Below are positions 8,409-27,405 of a DNA stretch of 53,600 nt, in pieces. The notes beneath the pieces are model-generated. The model did no database searches. It worked only from the letters and a program-made list of their open reading frames with translations, and was not told the origin of the DNA. The position numbers and the translations under genes were made by a program. This DNA is from Methanosarcina sp. 2.H.T.1A.6 (GTDB lineage: Archaea > Halobacteriota > Methanosarcinia > Methanosarcinales > Methanosarcinaceae), in assembly GCF_000979455.1 (NCBI RefSeq), contig NZ_JJOY01000006.1, positions 1 through 53,600 on the forward strand, in the 5' to 3' direction. Numbering within the stretch: the first letter of the stretch is position 1; the number at the start of each line of letters is the position of its first letter.

Positions 8409-8925
8409 GTGAGCACTTATAGCAATGGCATTCTTCTATTCAGGTTCAGGAATAAGAAACTCGAGGTGATGCTGGTTCATCCAGGTGGGCCATTTTGGGC
8501 AAAAAATACTATGGAGTGTGGTCAAACCTAAAGGGCTACCCGAAAAGAATGAAACCCCTCTGAACACGGCAAAAAGAGAATTTAGAGAAGAAACAGGTTT
8601 TGAGGTTGACGGCGAGTTTATTGATTTGGGAGAGTTAAATCAACCTAATCGAAAAATAGTGCATGTATGGGCTCTTGAAAAAGACCTGAATACAACAAGT
8701 GTTGTGAGTAATACATTTACGTTTGAATGGCCAAAAAATTCCGGGAAAGTGCATGAGTATCCCGAGGTCGACAAAGCAGGCTGGTTTGATATCGAACTTG
8801 CCAGGAAAAAAATACGAAAAGGACAGATCTGTTTTCTTGATAGATTCATGGATGTTATAAATTACTCCCAGAAGGAAGAGGACCTGGACAAAGAAAAAAG
8901 GTACAGGCAAACTACATTATTATAA
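8409..8925 (+). pseudogene. NUDIX hydrolase gene broken by a frameshift
   Basis: A GTG start at 8409 opens STYSNGILLFRFRNKKLEVM and LVHPGGPFWAK, the usual start of a small NUDIX hydrolase, then runs into a stop. The continuation (WSVVKPKG and onward) is in another frame from about 8500. The break falls in the A6 run after TTTTGGGC and fits one extra base. The NUDIX box is complete: G, five residues, E, seven residues, REFREETGF (Gly, Glu and EE all present). The remainder ends with LDRFMDVI as in family members. It is either an inactivated nucleotide-diphosphatase-type gene or a sequencing error in a homopolymer. Confidence 0.75.
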
Positions 8926-9061
8926 AGCATGGAATTAATTAAAGAAGCTTAAATAGTAATATGTAAGTGAATCAAAACAGTTTACTTATTAGTTACTAAA
9001 GAATAAGATTAAATAAGTCAGCGTTTAAAGTGGACACCAATAGTCGGTTCTGTCAAAGGAC

Positions 9062-12000
9062 GTGTTTGCTCTGAGTCAAAAGAATGACGAATACGATGCT
9101 CTTTTTAAATCTCGTTTTCATGGTGCCACAAATATTCACGGAATTAGGTATCAAATTCTTTATTCAATCCTTCGGGCCTTTGAACTTTATGATAATGAAA
9201 CACAAGCAGCATCAATTACACTCGAAGGGATTGAAGATGTAGATGTAGAGGTTGTTGGGCTCAGAATTTTGAATGAGTATGTTCAAGTAAAATCTTCAAG
9301 TAAGCATTGGACTTGGAGTAATCTTAAGAGTTATGATAATAAAAGGGGTCCAATACAAAATTTTATTGATGCTCATAGAGTAGATTCAGATTCAAACTTT
9401 TTGTTAGTATTCGATTTTGAATTAAAGAACGAAATTGAAAAGATTTCACGATTCAGTTCCCTTCCGGAAAAAGAAAGAGAAGAATTAAAGAAAAAATTTA
9501 GGGAGCTTTGCAGAGGTTTTGGTGGAACAAACTCAGAAGCTGATGCAATTCTAAACAAATTAAATATAGTTTCTCTATCTGAAGAAGAAACTCTAAAGTC
9601 ACTCAGAAAAATTATCTTTGCAACATACGACCTAGGTAGCGATATCGTTGAATATTACATTAAAATATTCATTTCAACATTCCTAAAATGGGCAGAAGAA
9701 AGAAAAAAAGTATTGAGGAAGGATCTTGAAGAAATAAGGGTTTCTATTCAAGAATCCGTTAAACGAGAAGAAGATTATCAAGCTTATGGAAGAGGTTTGA
9801 TAGATCGGATTTCTTGGGAACCTGATGCTAGTATAGATGATTTTTTTGAAGGAAAAAATTCGAGACCTGGTCACATTGTTTGTGGAGCTGATGTTAGAAG
9901 GGATAAATGGATAGAAAGAATTGAAAATGCTTTTGCGTCTTCCAACGTTTGTGTTCTGCGTTCATCAAGTGGACAAGGTAAATCTGCTCTTCTCTATCGC
10001 TATGCATATGAAAACTGGCCTTCTGAAAGCACGTATATCCTCCAAGTTCTTGAAACAAATGAACAAGTTGAAAAAGTTAAAAATTACCTTAAGTTCAGAA
10101 AAAGAATACAATTGCCAATTCTTCTTCTCATAGATAACGCAGGATTTAGGACACCCTATTGGCCTCAAATCGCACAAGAATGCTCTAGTCTTGGGTTCAA
10201 AATCCTATTATCTATACGTAACGAGGATTGGTATCGTTATTCAAAAGAGAATCTAACCCATATCGAGATAGTTGAGCCGACCTTTGATCTCATAGAAGCT
10301 AAGGAAGTTTATAACCGATTCAAAGAAAAAGGTAAAATTGCCCTCACTGTTGAATCGCCTGAGTGGGCATATGAGAAAATAGGAGATTCGAGATTATTTA
10401 TTGAATATATCTATCTAATTACTCATGGGAAAATGCTTGAGGAACGTCTGCAGGATCAAATACGACAGATTCTGAATCTTCACAAAGATGTACGTAAAAT
10501 TGAATTGATTAGAAGAATTTCGTTGGCTGACACCCTTGGAGTACCAATTATTATAGACAAGCTACTGGAAGTCGTTTCTGTCCAAGGTGATCCTCAAGAC
10601 CTATTACTTTCGCTTTCTGACGAATATATCAGTATAAACTCTGAAACAGCTTCTGGTTTACATTGGGTGCGTTCTAACCACCTTGTCAAGATTCTTCACA
10701 ATAAATATCCACCGATGGCTAAAACTGCATTATCTATTATTGAATCTGTGCCATCACCTAATATTTCAACTTTGATTTCAAATGCTTTGACAACAAAAGA
10801 GATAGATAATGATATCTTTTTAGAAGGTCTTGCAGAAAAATGTATTGATGCTGATTTAGATAAAATATTCGTGTTTCTAGAAGGTATTTATGAGGCGGGA
10901 GAGTGCCTACTCTATGAAAGAAATCAAAACCTGTTTGAAGAGGCTTTCAACTTACAAGGTTCTTCAGGCATTCGTCTTTTGAGTTGGGAATTCTCTCCGT
11001 TATCACAAAATTTTTTGTCAAAGGTAAGTAACATTTCTAATAACAACGAAAATATTCAATATCTTAATGACATTGCTTCAAAGGTTATTAAGGAACCAAG
11101 AGGTCTAAATCTGTGTCATGATTTTCTTACAAAAATCGTTCCTACTATTAATGAAAAAAGATTAGTTGACCAACAAAAAATAGGCAGATTCCTTAACTGG
11201 TGTTCATTAAGTAATGTAAAAGTGACTATATGGGAGTCTATTAAAGACATAACTATTGAAAATAAAGAAATTTTTAATTCGAACTTGGATTCTTTTGCCG
11301 ATTTTTCATTAGGGCTTTATCGATATGACGAAGAGATGTATGTAAAGTGGTTCCTGAAATATAAAGAGGAAATTTTAGGATGTCTGTTATTGAAGACTAA
11401 TTGTGTTAGAATTTTAATTAAAGAAAAAAGGTTGTGTGTTGAGTTTTTTGTTGGACCTTCGGATGATGCAAGTAAACAAGCAATTACAAGATTAGAAGTT
11501 CTAAGATCTATTTTTCCTTTTTGCGATAAATATCAATCAAGAGGAATATGGATACTTCCTTTTGAACTTATACCTTCTTACGATCCCTCTATAAAGGATA
11601 TTTCATATGAGAATTTACCTATTAAGTCAGATATTCAAAAAAATGTTATTTGGAATAATATTGTAGAAAGCCACTACTATCTGACCAGTTTATATGAGTA
11701 TGAAAAGCTATGGTATGATTTTCGTATAGAGAATTTAGAATTCATCAAAAATATTTCTAAATTATTCAAGGCACTTATTGAAGGAAAATCCAAAAAATAT
11801 ATTGAAAAATATATTAACAGACACGAAGAGCTAAAAAATAGATTAAATAGTTTCTTCAAAGATTTTCCTATTCTTTCAAACGAACTAAAAGATAATTTCT
11901 CCGAAGAACTATGGAATCAATTAAAAGAGTTCTCTTCACCCACAGGTAAAAAATATCCCTTGAGAAATTGGTTTTCTTCTCTTAATAATTTCTTCCATCA

Positions 12001-13030
12001 AATATCAATATATATAGACTATAAAGATAGTAGAGCAGGAAAACTAGCTGTATCTTATTTAAAAGATTCTCTAAAATACCTTACAGGAATGCACAAAACG
12101 TTTGAATCATTTTTTAATGTTTCGTACGATTATTTCAATGCAAAATCTCTCGACGAAGAAGAACTAAAAGCTTATTATTTACTAGCTGATTTGTTTAATT
12201 TATGGATTAATGAACCACCTAGGATAAAGCCTAAAAACGCTTTGAGTTACATTCGCCAAAAAAAAGAATTTCAGCAGAAAAAACTTATTTTTCAATTGAA
12301 TGAAATTTTTGTCCCACTGAAATCAAAAGGTATGACAATAATAATGCCTGAAAATATTTACGTAGATCATCCATTAAAATATTTAATTTTTGCATTCTCT
12401 GTGAAAGATCCGCGGCATGTTCTCGAAAAAGAATTAATAACTATCTTGGAATCATTACTTGAACTTAAAGAGATAGCTGACTTCTTTTATCTTGTTCCCT
12501 TATATAATGAAGCACTTTTTTGTAGTGGAGGGTACAAAATAAATTCAAATCGAATTGCTGAGTTGCTATCTCAACTAAAAGGGAATAATATTAAGAATTG
12601 GGAAGCTGTAAGACTGCAACCAATTCCTAAATGTTTAATAAATTACTTACCCACTTTAGAATTTAGAAACTCTCCTGTATACCAAATTCAAGTAAAAATA
12701 TTTGAATTAGTGGGTATGGTTCAAGTATTGAAGAAAACAAAAGATTACTTTGAGCCCCCAAGTTCAGAGCAAAATGAATATATTCTAGAATTGTGTAAAC
12801 GACAGAAAAATCGTTTGCTTGAAGATGAAAAAAATCTAGCAATTTCAGTAATAGAAATAAAAGATTATCTTCTTACCGAGTTTTCGTCTCAATCAAAAGA
12901 GTCTCATTTTAAAGAATTATGTGATTTTTTGAGTTTAATAGAGATCTCATTGGAAAGTGACACATTAGACAAATGCTTAGATAAATTAGATAATGAAAGA
13001 ATATCTAATGCGATAACTTTGTTAGAATGA
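9062..13030 (+). CDS. Cap4-like nuclease / STAND NTPase, Avs-like defence protein
   Basis: A 1322-residue protein with three zones. Residues about 15-125 resemble the Cap4/DUF4297 dsDNA-endonuclease fold (PD-(D/E)xK): FHGATNIHGIRYQILYSIL, then LEGIEDVDVEV (Glu55, Asp61) and YVQVKSS (Gln75, Lys77). Residues about 265-480 are a STAND-type P-loop NTPase: Walker A SSGQGKSAL (302-310), Walker B PILLLIDNA (Asp358) and LLSIRNEDW after it. Residues about 480-1322 are helical with no motif I recognise, where STAND proteins keep their sensor. This nuclease-NTPase-sensor order is that of Avs (AVAST) antiviral proteins, which cut DNA after recognising a phage protein. The gene is strikingly AT-rich, stands alone and is flanked by two broken genes, suggesting acquisition. 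It starts at GTG 9062; AAAGGA lies only one base upstream, and no in-frame ATG is near. Defence is an inference. Confidence 0.75.
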   Translation: MFALSQKNDEYDALFKSRFHGATNIHGIRYQILYSILRAFELYDNETQAASITLEGIEDVDVEVVGLRILNEYVQVKSSSKHWTWSNLKSYDNKRGPIQNFIDAHRVDSDSNFLLVFDFELKNEIEKISRFSSLPEKEREELKKKFRELCRGFGGTNSEADAILNKLNIVSLSEEETLKSLRKIIFATYDLGSDIVEYYIKIFISTFLKWAEERKKVLRKDLEEIRVSIQESVKREEDYQAYGRGLIDRISWEPDASIDDFFEGKNSRPGHIVCGADVRRDKWIERIENAFASSNVCVLRSSSGQGKSALLYRYAYENWPSESTYILQVLETNEQVEKVKNYLKFRKRIQLPILLLIDNAGFRTPYWPQIAQECSSLGFKILLSIRNEDWYRYSKENLTHIEIVEPTFDLIEAKEVYNRFKEKGKIALTVESPEWAYEKIGDSRLFIEYIYLITHGKMLEERLQDQIRQILNLHKDVRKIELIRRISLADTLGVPIIIDKLLEVVSVQGDPQDLLLSLSDEYISINSETASGLHWVRSNHLVKILHNKYPPMAKTALSIIESVPSPNISTLISNALTTKEIDNDIFLEGLAEKCIDADLDKIFVFLEGIYEAGECLLYERNQNLFEEAFNLQGSSGIRLLSWEFSPLSQNFLSKVSNISNNNENIQYLNDIASKVIKEPRGLNLCHDFLTKIVPTINEKRLVDQQKIGRFLNWCSLSNVKVTIWESIKDITIENKEIFNSNLDSFADFSLGLYRYDEEMYVKWFLKYKEEILGCLLLKTNCVRILIKEKRLCVEFFVGPSDDASKQAITRLEVLRSIFPFCDKYQSRGIWILPFELIPSYDPSIKDISYENLPIKSDIQKNVIWNNIVESHYYLTSLYEYEKLWYDFRIENLEFIKNISKLFKALIEGKSKKYIEKYINRHEELKNRLNSFFKDFPILSNELKDNFSEELWNQLKEFSSPTGKKYPLRNWFSSLNNFFHQISIYIDYKDSRAGKLAVSYLKDSLKYLTGMHKTFESFFNVSYDYFNAKSLDEEELKAYYLLADLFNLWINEPPRIKPKNALSYIRQKKEFQQKKLIFQLNEIFVPLKSKGMTIIMPENIYVDHPLKYLIFAFSVKDPRHVLEKELITILESLLELKEIADFFYLVPLYNEALFCSGGYKINSNRIAELLSQLKGNNIKNWEAVRLQPIPKCLINYLPTLEFRNSPVYQIQVKIFELVGMVQVLKKTKDYFEPPSSEQNEYILELCKRQKNRLLEDEKNLAISVIEIKDYLLTEFSSQSKESHFKELCDFLSLIEISLESDTLDKCLDKLDNERISNAITLLE

Positions 13031-13105
13031 GCTGTTGTTTTATAAGAACTGCACTCAAGTTATGCCAGGGAAAAATATTTACAAAACATCCTCAACCTTT
13101 CTAAC

Positions 13106-13505
13106 GTGAATTTGGATTTTTGATTTTTCCGGGACTCGAAGAGCTTGACCTTGTCGGTCCCTGGGAAATAATCTCGCTCTGGAGCAAATTTGCCCAGGGA
13201 CCTGAAAAATGCCTCCAGGTTGCCGAAAATCCCGGTCCCGTAATCTGTCTAAAAGGAATGTCAATAAATCCTTACGCCACCTTTCTCAGATTGCCCTCCA
13301 CTTGATTTTCTCCTTGTGCCGGGCGGCTGACGTGGAGGTTGTGGAAGAACGGATCGTAAGGGGTGGAAATATCTAAACCTCGGCAGGCATTTCTGCTGGC
13401 ATTGATATGGCGCCTGCATTTGTTGAATTCATGACTGACAAAAAAACGGCGGGTAAAATTCAGCTTGGGGCCGGTATTACCCGTCAGGAAGGTCATACGG
13501 CATGA
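13106..13505 (+). pseudogene. DJ-1/PfpI-family gene remnant with internal deletion
   Basis: Pieces of a DJ-1/PfpI (ThiJ-like) protein are readable in order but in different frames: FPGLEELDLVGPWEIISLWS, KFAQGPEKCLQVAENPGP, SDCPPLDFLLVPGG, EVVEERIVRGGN, then (after a TAA) TSAGISAGIDMAPAFVEF and GKIQLGAG. About 400 bp remain where the family usually needs about 650. The nucleophile-elbow Cys region between VPGG and EVVEER is deleted. There is also a one-base loss near the GTG start, a frameshift near 13287 and a nonsense codon. The gene is dead. It is less AT-rich than the STAND gene just upstream. Confidence 0.8.
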
Positions 13506-13560
13506 TGCACAAAATTCCGCAGGCTCCTGAGTATTTGAGAAAGAGGAACTGAAAGTCCCT

Positions 13561-13620
13561 CAAAACCTCTCAAAACCTCTCAAAACCTCTCAAAACCTCT
13601 CAAAACCTTTCAAAACCTTT
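13561..13620. repeat. Six 10-bp tandem repeats
   Basis: CAAAACCTCT is repeated four times exactly and twice as CAAAACCTTT, with no gaps. It lies a few bases beyond the 3' end of the nitroreductase gene. Confidence 0.9.
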
Positions 13621-13627
13621 TAAAGTC

Positions 13628-14446
13628 TTACTGCCACGTTACTTCAAGAGGCTTCCTGCGAGGAATTCCATACACTTTGTACTGCGGGTTGCCAAACATC
13701 ATTGCGTGAGCAATTTTCCTTCCTTCGGGCAGGTTTAGCTCCTTCTGGAGAGGTTCATAGAACATGGTAGCCGCCGCAACAAAGCCCGCCCAGCATGTCC
13801 CGATCCCGAATGCCGGCGCAGCGATATCAAAATGCGTGAGGGCGATGATAGCATCTACAGGTGCAATTGGACTTTCTTCAGGAATATGGGCGAAAAGCAG
13901 GTGTGGAGCATCCTGACAGATTACATCGATTCCCTGCTCCCATGCAGAAATAAGAATCGGCACGTAGCCGCTCATGGGGTGGTCGGTGTTCAGAAGGGTT
14001 TTCATCCATTCCATGGTGAGCTCGGCAATTTTCCTGACTTTCTTCGGGTCATGGATAACCAGCCACTGCACTGGTTGAAAATTGACACCAGAAGCTGCAT
14101 AGCGGGCAATATCAAGGACTTCGAGGATTTTCTCCCTTGGCACGGGTTCCCGGGTAAAATGCCGAATAGACCTGCGTTTTTTGATGTAGAACGCCATATC
14201 TTCTGGAGAGATGTTGCCTGCATCGGCAGGAAGGAGAACTTTTTCCTCAGGACGGAGGTTCAGGATGAGTGCCTGAGACGGACAGAAAGCTTCGCAATGC
14301 CCGCAGTAGAGACAGCGAAAAACGTTTTCGTCCTGCACCTGAGGGAGATTAGTTTCATCAGCCAGACCGATAACACCTGAAGAGCATATCTTTGCACAAA
14401 GACCGCATCCTGTGCAGCGATCCTGATCAACAATAATATGAGTCAT
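13628..14446 (-). CDS. Ferredoxin-nitroreductase fusion protein
   Basis: A 272-residue fusion. Residues 1-60 are a 2[4Fe-4S] ferredoxin with CTGCGLCAKIC and CLYCGHCEAFCP. The rest is an FMN-binding nitroreductase fold beginning KKRRSIRHFTREPVPREKILEVL and containing ASGVNFQPVQWLV and the FGIGTCWAGF loop. Such archaeal fusions probably take electrons from ferredoxin to reduce an unknown substrate with FMN. The ATG at 14446 is preferred over two codons upstream because AGGAT is then well spaced and the same arrangement exists in the paralogue at 28768. The promoter region (14472-14502) is conserved between the two copies. Tandem 10-bp repeats follow the stop. Confidence 0.85.
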   Translation of the reverse strand: MTHIIVDQDRCTGCGLCAKICSSGVIGLADETNLPQVQDENVFRCLYCGHCEAFCPSQALILNLRPEEKVLLPADAGNISPEDMAFYIKKRRSIRHFTREPVPREKILEVLDIARYAASGVNFQPVQWLVIHDPKKVRKIAELTMEWMKTLLNTDHPMSGYVPILISAWEQGIDVICQDAPHLLFAHIPEESPIAPVDAIIALTHFDIAAPAFGIGTCWAGFVAAATMFYEPLQKELNLPEGRKIAHAMMFGNPQYKVYGIPRRKPLEVTWQ

Positions 14447-14471
14447 AATCATCAAATCCTGTTAAAGGTAA

Positions 14472-26397: not shown

Positions 26398-27405
26398 TCA
26401 AGCCATTGCCGGTTTAGGGGTATCAGTACTCCCTTTGCATACATCCCTGTCTGTATGCAATTGATCTATGCACAGACGCATTGCTATATTGAATCCAGCG
26501 TTGCTTTCAGCATGATCAACGTGTCCGCATTCAGAACAGTTGAAACTCTTTTTGTCCCTCTTGCCAATGTGTCCGCATCCACTACACGATTGTGAAGTGT
26601 ATGCAGGATCGACATAAGCAACTTCTACACCAAGCAGCTTGGCTTTGTATTCTATGAACATTTGCAATTGATAGAATGACCAACTGTGTTTGGAATAGCG
26701 GAACGATTTAGTATTTCTCTTGCTGTTTCGGATTCCGGTCAAATCTTCAAGTTTGATTCCCTTTCCGATTTCTTTCGCCTTATTGACTATCGTTCTCGAT
26801 ACTTTATGATTGATGTCTCGAACTATTCGGCTTTCTCTGTTCCTTATCTGTTTGACGTTGCCTTATTTGCCCTTTTTCGGAAGGTTTCTCCGCATGTTTT
26901 TGTATTTTTGATGGACATGCAAAGCTGATTTTCCAAGCTTCAAAACTTTACCAGTTTCGGGATCAGACACAACTGCAATATGTCCGGTAGTATTCCGGTC
27001 TACACCTAACCAATCAGTTACTTTGACAAGTTCGGGTTCGAGTATGGACACTGAAACATATGCATATTCTTTCCCGATTTCGATTTGGTTGACTTTCTCT
27101 AAGCTATTGGAAAATTCGTATTTCAGAATAAGCTTCAAACACGGAGCATAAATAATCCTTGCAAATCGGTCTACCTTAATCCCCTGATTAGGAATAGCTA
27201 ATTTGACACTCCTGACGTTCTTGGCTTTTCGATTACCACTGTACTTTTTGAGTATCTGATTAGCAATCATTGATTTCAGACCGATATGCTTGACATCCTT
27301 AGAACTACGGCTACGTGTTCGGATAGCATAATAGGCTACCTTTTTAGCCTTTTTCAGTTCATATGACAAATCTCTACAGTGTTTGATTTTGTAGGTCAGA
27401 ATCAT
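26398..27405 (-). pseudogene. tnpB: tnpB, RNA-guided nuclease-type gene with one nonsense codon
   Basis: A 335-codon TnpB reading frame interrupted only by TAA at 26863-26865 (after NLPKKGK), both halves being in the same frame. RuvC motif I is WLGVDRNTTGHIAVV, motif II is IKLEDLTGIR, and the zinc ribbon is CSGCGHIGKRDKKSFNCSEC. The third acidic position, normally Asp in a (N/H)ADxNA motif, reads HAESNAGFNIA, i.e. Glu. TnpB is the IS-encoded guide-RNA nuclease that cuts donor sites. The start overlaps the end of tnpA by four bases. Product inactive as written unless the TAA is bypassed. Confidence 0.85.

What the first reader, a model, noticed from the sequence alone, without database searches (positions are those of the whole stretch)
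9062..13030. A lone Cap4-like nuclease / STAND NTPase giant in an archaeon
The 1322-residue protein joins a PD-(D/E)xK-like N terminus (LEGIEDVDVEV, YVQVKSS) to a P-loop NTPase (SSGQGKS, PILLLIDNA) and about 840 residues of unassigned C terminus. Architecture and length fit the Avs (AVAST) family, which senses viral proteins directly. Almost all described Avs work is bacterial, so an archaeal-virus sensor with its own target would be new.
Basis: partly seen in the sequence, partly recalled or inferred. Interest (0 to 1): 0.78.

Follow-up and report, generated by a model that had tools for sequence, protein, structure and literature searches.

The report
Archaeal single-gene antiviral sensor-nuclease (predicted)
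A methane-making archaeon carries one large gene that looks like a self-contained virus alarm: a DNA-cutting enzyme, an ATP-driven switch and a fast-evolving sensing arm. It sits at a chromosome site where related species keep other defence-type genes, and it belongs to an uncatalogued sister group of the known bacterial Avs sensors.

Summary
Window 9062-13030 (+) is an intact 1322-aa gene in a Methanosarcina genome, with an N-terminal Cap4-type PD-(D/E)xK nuclease, a STAND NTPase (Pfam nSTAND_NTPase5) with winged helix, and a mostly helical C terminus with no confident match. A predicted model of residues 1-575 has Avs3-terminase as its best PDB match (E 1.4e-12), then Cap4, Avs4, LmuA and Avs5. 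Catalytic, Walker and winged-helix residues are invariant across archaeal, plasmid and viral-contig relatives at 17-29% identity. The gene is accessory (2 of 31 Methanosarcina genomes; 8 of 393 in the phylum, one a contaminant) and under purifying selection, with the C terminus diverging about four times faster than the NTPase. Its insertion site is a variable locus: other Methanosarcina carry SIR2, DUF2971, DUF4062-STAND, HNH or IS genes there. Distant relatives lie beside Shedu, HsdM, MmeI and type IV restriction genes. It is not a member of a catalogued Avs family: no PADLOC or NCBIfam model matches it, while a real Avs2 in another Methanosarcina is found easily. So archaeal Avs homologues already exist. 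Best reading: an Avs-like lone sensor-nuclease of an unnamed Cap4-nSTAND5 family shared by archaea and bacteria. The trigger is unknown.

The parts
9062..13030 (+). Cap4-nSTAND5 sensor-nuclease gene, 1322 aa (GTG start at 9062; true start not proven)
   Evidence: ORF and translation; Pfam; purifying selection
9122..9451 (+). Cap4-type PD-(D/E)xK nuclease core, about residues 21-130; residues invariant in 8 divergent relatives: G27, Q31, Y34, E55, G56, E58, D59, Q75, K77
   Evidence: Pfam Cap4_nuclease, invariant columns, alpha-beta-beta-beta-alpha-beta order in the model, Foldseek to Cap4 and LmuA
9452..9838 (+). helical linker between nuclease and NTPase, residues 131-259
   Evidence: model secondary structure
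9839..10336 (+). STAND NTPase nucleotide-binding domain, residues 260-425: Walker A SGQGKS 303-308, Walker B LLLID 354-358, R-x-E-D-W-x-R 386-392
   Evidence: Pfam nSTAND_NTPase5, invariant residues
10337..10696 (+). helical and winged-helix region, residues 426-545, with EYIYLITHG (448-456) and an invariant GLHxxRS motif (532-538) proposed as counterpart of the MHD sensor of NLRs
   Evidence: invariant residues; model helices and strands; the MHD analogy is inference
10697..13027 (+). C-terminal putative sensor, residues 546-1322: mostly helical with a small alpha/beta segment near residues 1107-1161; last ~125 residues not modelled with confidence
   Evidence: model; no confident PDB match; fastest-diverging part
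8485..8925 (+). NUDIX-domain gene: conserved left flank of the variable site; homology to other Methanosarcina ends at its stop codon
   Evidence: Pfam, flank comparison
13052..13560 (+). broken DJ-1/PfpI-like gene: conserved right flank of the variable site, internally deleted here (family name from sequence motif, not profile-tested)
   Evidence: relatives hold a 226-231 aa ORF
13628..14455 (-). ferredoxin-nitroreductase gene, outer right flank shared with other Methanosarcina
   Evidence: Pfam, flank comparison

Best explanation
A single-protein antiviral (or anti-mobile-element) sensor-nuclease that works like an Avs protein. Shown here by sequence or model: a Cap4-type nuclease, a STAND NTPase with intact Walker A, Walker B, arginine and winged-helix motifs, a large C-terminal arm that evolves fast, accessory distribution, and a chromosomal site that other species fill with defence-type genes. 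Inferred: at rest the NTPase is ADP-bound and monomeric; the C-terminal arm binds a conserved invader protein; ATP binding drives oligomerisation; clustered nuclease domains then cut double-stranded DNA of virus and host, stopping infection or killing the cell. It belongs to a Cap4-nSTAND5 family that is a sister of, not a member of, the catalogued Avs families, and it moves between archaea and bacteria.
For: Pfam domains. Foldseek of residues 1-575: Avs3 E 1.4e-12, Cap4 2.7e-8, Avs4 2.3e-6, LmuA 7.4e-6, EfAvs5 4.3e-5. Invariant catalytic and NTPase residues at 17-29% identity. dN/dS 0.07 in NTPase against 0.22-0.30 in C terminus. Patchy distribution. Variable site with SIR2 (ThsA-like), DUF2971, DUF4062-STAND (Avs2-like), HNH in other species. 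Relatives beside Shedu, HsdM, MmeI, type IV restriction enzyme. Plasmid homologues in Bacteroidota, Cyanobacteriota, Pseudomonadota, Actinomycetota and Deinococcota.
Against: No experiment. The C terminus has no confident structural match, so the sensing step is unproven. Models rest on 5-row alignments (mean pLDDT 69 and 60), with low whole-chain TM-scores, so domain arrangement is not established. In several archaeal relatives the neighbours are ordinary metabolic or arsenic genes. The variable site also holds non-defence cargo in some species.
Confidence: 0.72

Rival explanations
1. It is a true, divergent member of an Avs family (Avs3-like) that senses the large terminase or portal of archaeal head-tailed viruses.
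For: Best fold match of nuclease plus NTPase is Avs3 bound to terminase, and Avs4 bound to portal is also found. The best, though weak, fold hit of the C-terminal piece is also Avs3 (E 4.8e-3; that piece includes the winged helix).
Against: No PADLOC or NCBIfam Avs model hits it, though the same library finds Avs2 in other Methanosarcina. The Avs3a model is 2090 positions against 1322 aa here. hhalign to archaeal Avs2 gives 2% probability. C-terminal fold match weak.
Confidence: 0.15
2. A nuclease that senses foreign or damaged DNA ends rather than a viral protein, closer in action to Lamassu LmuA, guarding against plasmids as well as viruses.
For: The N terminus of relatives matches PADLOC LmuA (E 1.7e-14 for L041, 4.9e-12 in A2 members), and LmuA bound to DNA is a fold match.
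Against: LmuA needs the SMC-type partner LmuB; none lies next to this gene. A fused STAND switch and fast-evolving C terminus point to ligand sensing by the same chain.
Confidence: 0.12
3. An NTPase-regulated nuclease with a housekeeping or regulatory role unrelated to invaders.
For: Some archaeal copies lie among metabolic or arsenic genes without defence neighbours.
Against: Present in 2 of 31 genomes of its genus and 8 of 393 of its phylum; sits at a variable site with other defence-type genes; plasmid-borne in five bacterial phyla.
Confidence: 0.06

Closest known systems
Avs3 (AVAST type 3; PDB 8dgc, bound to phage terminase)
   Same: Cap4-type nuclease, STAND NTPase, large C-terminal arm in one protein; best PDB fold match of residues 1-575
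   Different: Avs3a model is 2090 positions, this is 1322 aa; no sequence-model hit; C-terminal match only E 4.8e-3; NTPase falls in Pfam nSTAND5
Avs4 (PDB 8dgf, bound to phage portal)
   Same: nuclease-STAND-repeat layout, similar length (1541 residues in the chain), fold match E 2.3e-6
   Different: from general knowledge its nuclease is Mrr-like; no sequence-model hit here
Avs2 (PDB 9o4e; archaeal example L072 in Methanosarcina genome G297)
   Same: large STAND defence protein, also present in Methanosarcina
   Different: separate family: hhalign of this family's profile to L072 gives 2% probability, P-loop only; L072 has no nSTAND5 or Cap4 Pfam hit
Cap4 (CBASS effector, PDB 6wan, 6vm6)
   Same: same dsDNA nuclease domain (Pfam; Foldseek E 2.7e-8)
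   Different: no SAVED domain seen and no cyclase gene nearby; NTPase in its place
Lamassu LmuA (PDB 9nxx, 9hr5)
   Same: same nuclease superfamily
   Different: no LmuB partner; single protein with its own STAND switch

Membership tests
AVAST/Avs (types 1-5) | central STAND NTPase | tested here: met
   Pfam nSTAND_NTPase5 over cut-off; Walker and winged-helix motifs invariant
AVAST/Avs (types 1-5) | N-terminal effector, nuclease in types 2-4 | tested here: met
   Cap4 nuclease by Pfam in homologues and Foldseek
AVAST/Avs (types 1-5) | sequence membership of a described Avs clade | tested here: not met
   no PADLOC or NCBIfam match; positive control Avs2 found at 5.5e-190 in another Methanosarcina
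AVAST/Avs (types 1-5) | C-terminal helical-repeat sensor | tested here: inconclusive
   mostly helical but low confidence; best match Avs3 E 4.8e-3
AVAST/Avs (types 1-5) | direct activation by terminase, portal or other phage protein, with oligomerisation | not testable with these tools
   needs biochemistry
CBASS Cap4 effector | SAVED ligand domain and a nearby CD-NTase | tested here: not met
   STAND NTPase follows the nuclease; no cyclase among profiled neighbours
Lamassu | LmuA nuclease with SMC-type LmuB (and LmuC) next to it | tested here: not met
   neighbours are NUDIX, broken DJ-1-like and nitroreductase genes

The most novel reading that the evidence does not exclude
A separate class of single-protein viral sensors, present in archaea and bacteria but absent from defence catalogues, whose C-terminal arm recognises a viral component other than terminase or portal, and whose archaeal branch is tuned to viruses of methanogens.
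Probability: 0.4. Interest if true: 0.75.

Novelty: new variant of a known kind. Interest (0 to 1): 0.52.

Why it matters
It would extend Avs-type immunity by direct protein sensing to a family that current catalogues miss, in methanogens, where few antiviral mechanisms have been tested. The variable site beside it gives a simple way to find more single-gene defence candidates in Methanosarcina. The sensor arm differs in rate from the rest, so its target can be sought directly.

Tried and rejected
Sequence search of the protein and of its profile against the PDB gave only chance or generic P-loop hits. PADLOC and NCBIfam gave no match to the protein itself, PHROGs none. Avs3a was not found in 295 genomes of the phylum, but no control rang either, so absence is not shown. 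A second and third viral-contig scan added nothing new. Genome G036 was dropped as an independent carrier: its contig is 99.96% identical to G393 and is probably contamination. No tRNA or target-site repeat marks the insertion. Sigma-70 promoter scan is uninformative for an archaeon. Low nSTAND5 hits in all genomes and all 14 controls are below cut-off and were ignored.

Full report
WHAT IS THERE. The window is contig C52:1-53600 of a 4.07-Mb archaeal genome; the closest named relative is Methanosarcina sp. Ant1. The ORF at 9062-13030 (+) encodes 1322 aa without stops and is single copy. Pfam gives nSTAND_NTPase5 at 260-396 (E 5.1e-10, over cut-off) and Cap4_nuclease at 24-151 (E 2.2e-5, one bit under cut-off). 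In homologues the Cap4 hit passes the cut-off (L010 1.6e-12, L008 1.5e-7, L038 1.8e-7).

IS IT A REAL, WORKING GENE. Against the Ant1 orthologue (73% identity in the best segment; contig edge cuts its N terminus) dN/dS is 0.16 in the linker, 0.07 in NTPase plus winged helix, and 0.22, 0.30 and 0.30 in three C-terminal thirds. So the gene is under purifying selection and the C-terminal arm changes about four times faster than the switch. In an alignment of eight relatives at 17-29% identity to the first row, the nuclease residues G27, Q31, Y34, E55, G56, E58, D59, Q75, K77 and the NTPase residues S303-K307, R386, D389, R392, E448, H534, R537, S538 (P0001 numbering) never vary. E/D in EGIED and Q-x-K fit a PD-(D/E)xK active site. 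GLHxxRS lies where the winged helix of STAND proteins ends, and I propose it as the counterpart of the MHD motif of NLRs (inference).

STRUCTURE. Two pieces were modelled with shallow alignments (5 rows). Residues 1-575: mean pLDDT 69, pTM 0.44; nuclease order alpha-beta-beta-beta-alpha-beta, then the NTPase. Foldseek against the PDB: Avs3 with terminase E 1.4e-12 (prob 1.00), Cap4 E 2.7e-8, Avs4 with portal E 2.3e-6, LmuA E 7.4e-6, EfAvs5 E 4.3e-5, plant NLR RPP1 E 1.8e-3. Whole-chain TM-scores are low, so this identifies the domains and their order, not their arrangement. Residues 440-1322: mean pLDDT 60, mostly helices with a small alpha/beta segment; the last ~125 residues are not trustworthy. 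No PDB match at E 0.001; the best is Avs3 at 4.8e-3, prob 0.60, and this piece includes the winged helix. The sensor assignment of the C terminus therefore rests on architecture and rate, not on a fold match.

DISTRIBUTION. In the genus 2 of 31 genomes carry this gene (the window and Ant1), and a third has a 455-aa relative of the nuclease and NTPase only (L041). In the phylum 8 of 393 genomes match the profile, one of which (G036) is a 99.96% copy of G393 and probably contamination. Homologues of about 1,100-1,400 aa, mostly annotated as hypothetical proteins, lie on plasmids of Hymenobacter, Pseudanabaena, Arthrobacter, Marinovum, Ruegeria, Deinococcus and Caulobacter; the Sphingopyxis copy (632 aa) is cut short beside an IS21 element. 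Three lie on putative viral contigs, and one weak match is in a phage record. A tree groups the window, Ant1, G393, G274, G088 and G400 (100/99), while two other archaeal proteins (G001, G300) group with bacterial and viral-contig ones (97/99). This fits transfer between domains; rooting is by midpoint only.

SURROUNDINGS. Upstream is a NUDIX gene, downstream a broken DJ-1/PfpI-like gene and a ferredoxin-nitroreductase. These flanks are conserved at about 76-89% DNA identity in ten other Methanosarcina genomes, and homology stops at the NUDIX stop codon (about 8926) and resumes near 13050. What lies between differs: G311 a 649-aa SIR2 protein (PADLOC ThsA 1.8e-28); G308 a DUF2971 protein (PADLOC candidate PDC-S31); G303 an 884-aa DUF4062-NACHT protein (PADLOC Avs2 8.4e-23) with a radical-SAM gene; G301 an HNH endonuclease with a transposase-like pair; G295 IS elements; G227, G298, G313 and G315 a small 142-aa ORF (PKD domain in G227); G237 a 113-aa ORF. 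Ant1 has the gene at the same site. So it is a variable site where single defence-type genes recur, though not all cargo is defence. Elsewhere relatives sit beside Shedu SduA and another giant ATPase (L027), HsdM (L028), a DNA methylase (L029), MmeI (L012), helicase and methyltransferases (L013), and a type IV restriction enzyme (L039). G393, G274 and G088 show ordinary neighbours.

MECHANISM. Most likely an Avs-like switch: C-terminal arm binds an invader component, the STAND domain exchanges ADP for ATP and oligomerises, and the Cap4 nucleases cut DNA. Domain content and selection are shown; nucleotide cycle, oligomer, trigger and cell fate are inferred from Avs, Cap4 and NLR knowledge (that Avs1-4 kill by cutting phage and host DNA after terminase or portal recognition: PMC12931631).

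COMPARISON. It works like Avs but fails the one testable membership criterion, sequence placement in a described Avs family: PADLOC and NCBIfam give nothing, and across the wider family PADLOC sees only an LmuA-like nuclease (and one weak mad8 match) in some members. The same library finds a real Avs2 in Methanosarcina genome G297 (E 5.5e-190; PDB Avs2 9o4e E 1.5e-93), and hhalign of our profile to it is 2%. Avs5 carries nSTAND3 (PMC12931631), not nSTAND5, though some relatives score with both Pfam models, so the NTPases are related. It is not CBASS (no SAVED, no cyclase) nor Lamassu (no LmuB). The libraries searched hold no paper found to describe this family or the Methanosarcina site; the main Avs paper (Science 2022) is not held, so prior mention cannot be excluded.

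VERDICT. A real, functional-looking, uncatalogued Cap4-nSTAND5 sensor-nuclease; new variant of a known kind. Being archaeal is not in itself the novelty.

Noticed in passing
window 8926-13050; L063 3726-4796; L064 4383-6839; L067 3745-10099; L069 5489-10998; L077 2629-9726: A variable chromosomal site in Methanosarcina between a NUDIX gene and a DJ-1-like gene that holds SIR2, DUF2971, DUF4062-STAND plus radical SAM, HNH or IS genes in different species.
   Followed up: partly
L072 1483-5709 (-): Full-length Avs2 homologue (1408 aa) in another Methanosarcina genome, matching solved Avs2 9o4e at E 1.5e-93.
   Followed up: partly
L069 6291-8120 and 8150-10804 (-): DUF4062-NACHT protein (Avs2-like by PADLOC) followed by two small ORFs and a radical-SAM gene with weak viperin similarity; possible multi-gene defence unit, one small ORF begins MKIRTDFVTNSSSTSFVI.
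   Followed up: no
L027 4828-9408: A second giant (1526 aa, AAA/STAND-like, LmuA-like N terminus) directly upstream of the Cap4-nSTAND5 homologue and near Shedu.
   Followed up: no
L041 8643-10010 (-): 455-aa Cap4-nSTAND5 protein in a Methanosarcina that stops after the NTPase, without winged helix or sensor: truncated remnant or a shorter form.
   Followed up: no
L008 and L009: The two ~85% identical archaeal relatives have very uneven dS along the gene (0.83 in the linker, 0.10 at the C terminus), which suggests recombination or segment exchange.
   Followed up: partly
L005 (G036:C51): 5.4-kb contig 99.96% identical to another genome (G393) of a different family: probable binning contamination.
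   Followed up: yes
window 13052-13618: Broken DJ-1/PfpI-like gene with an internal deletion, ending in a run of 10-bp repeats (CTCAAAACCT).
   Followed up: partly
window 26398-26742 (-): Short ORF with a TnpB/Cas12f-type C-terminal domain, apparently a remnant of an IS200/IS605-type element.
   Followed up: no
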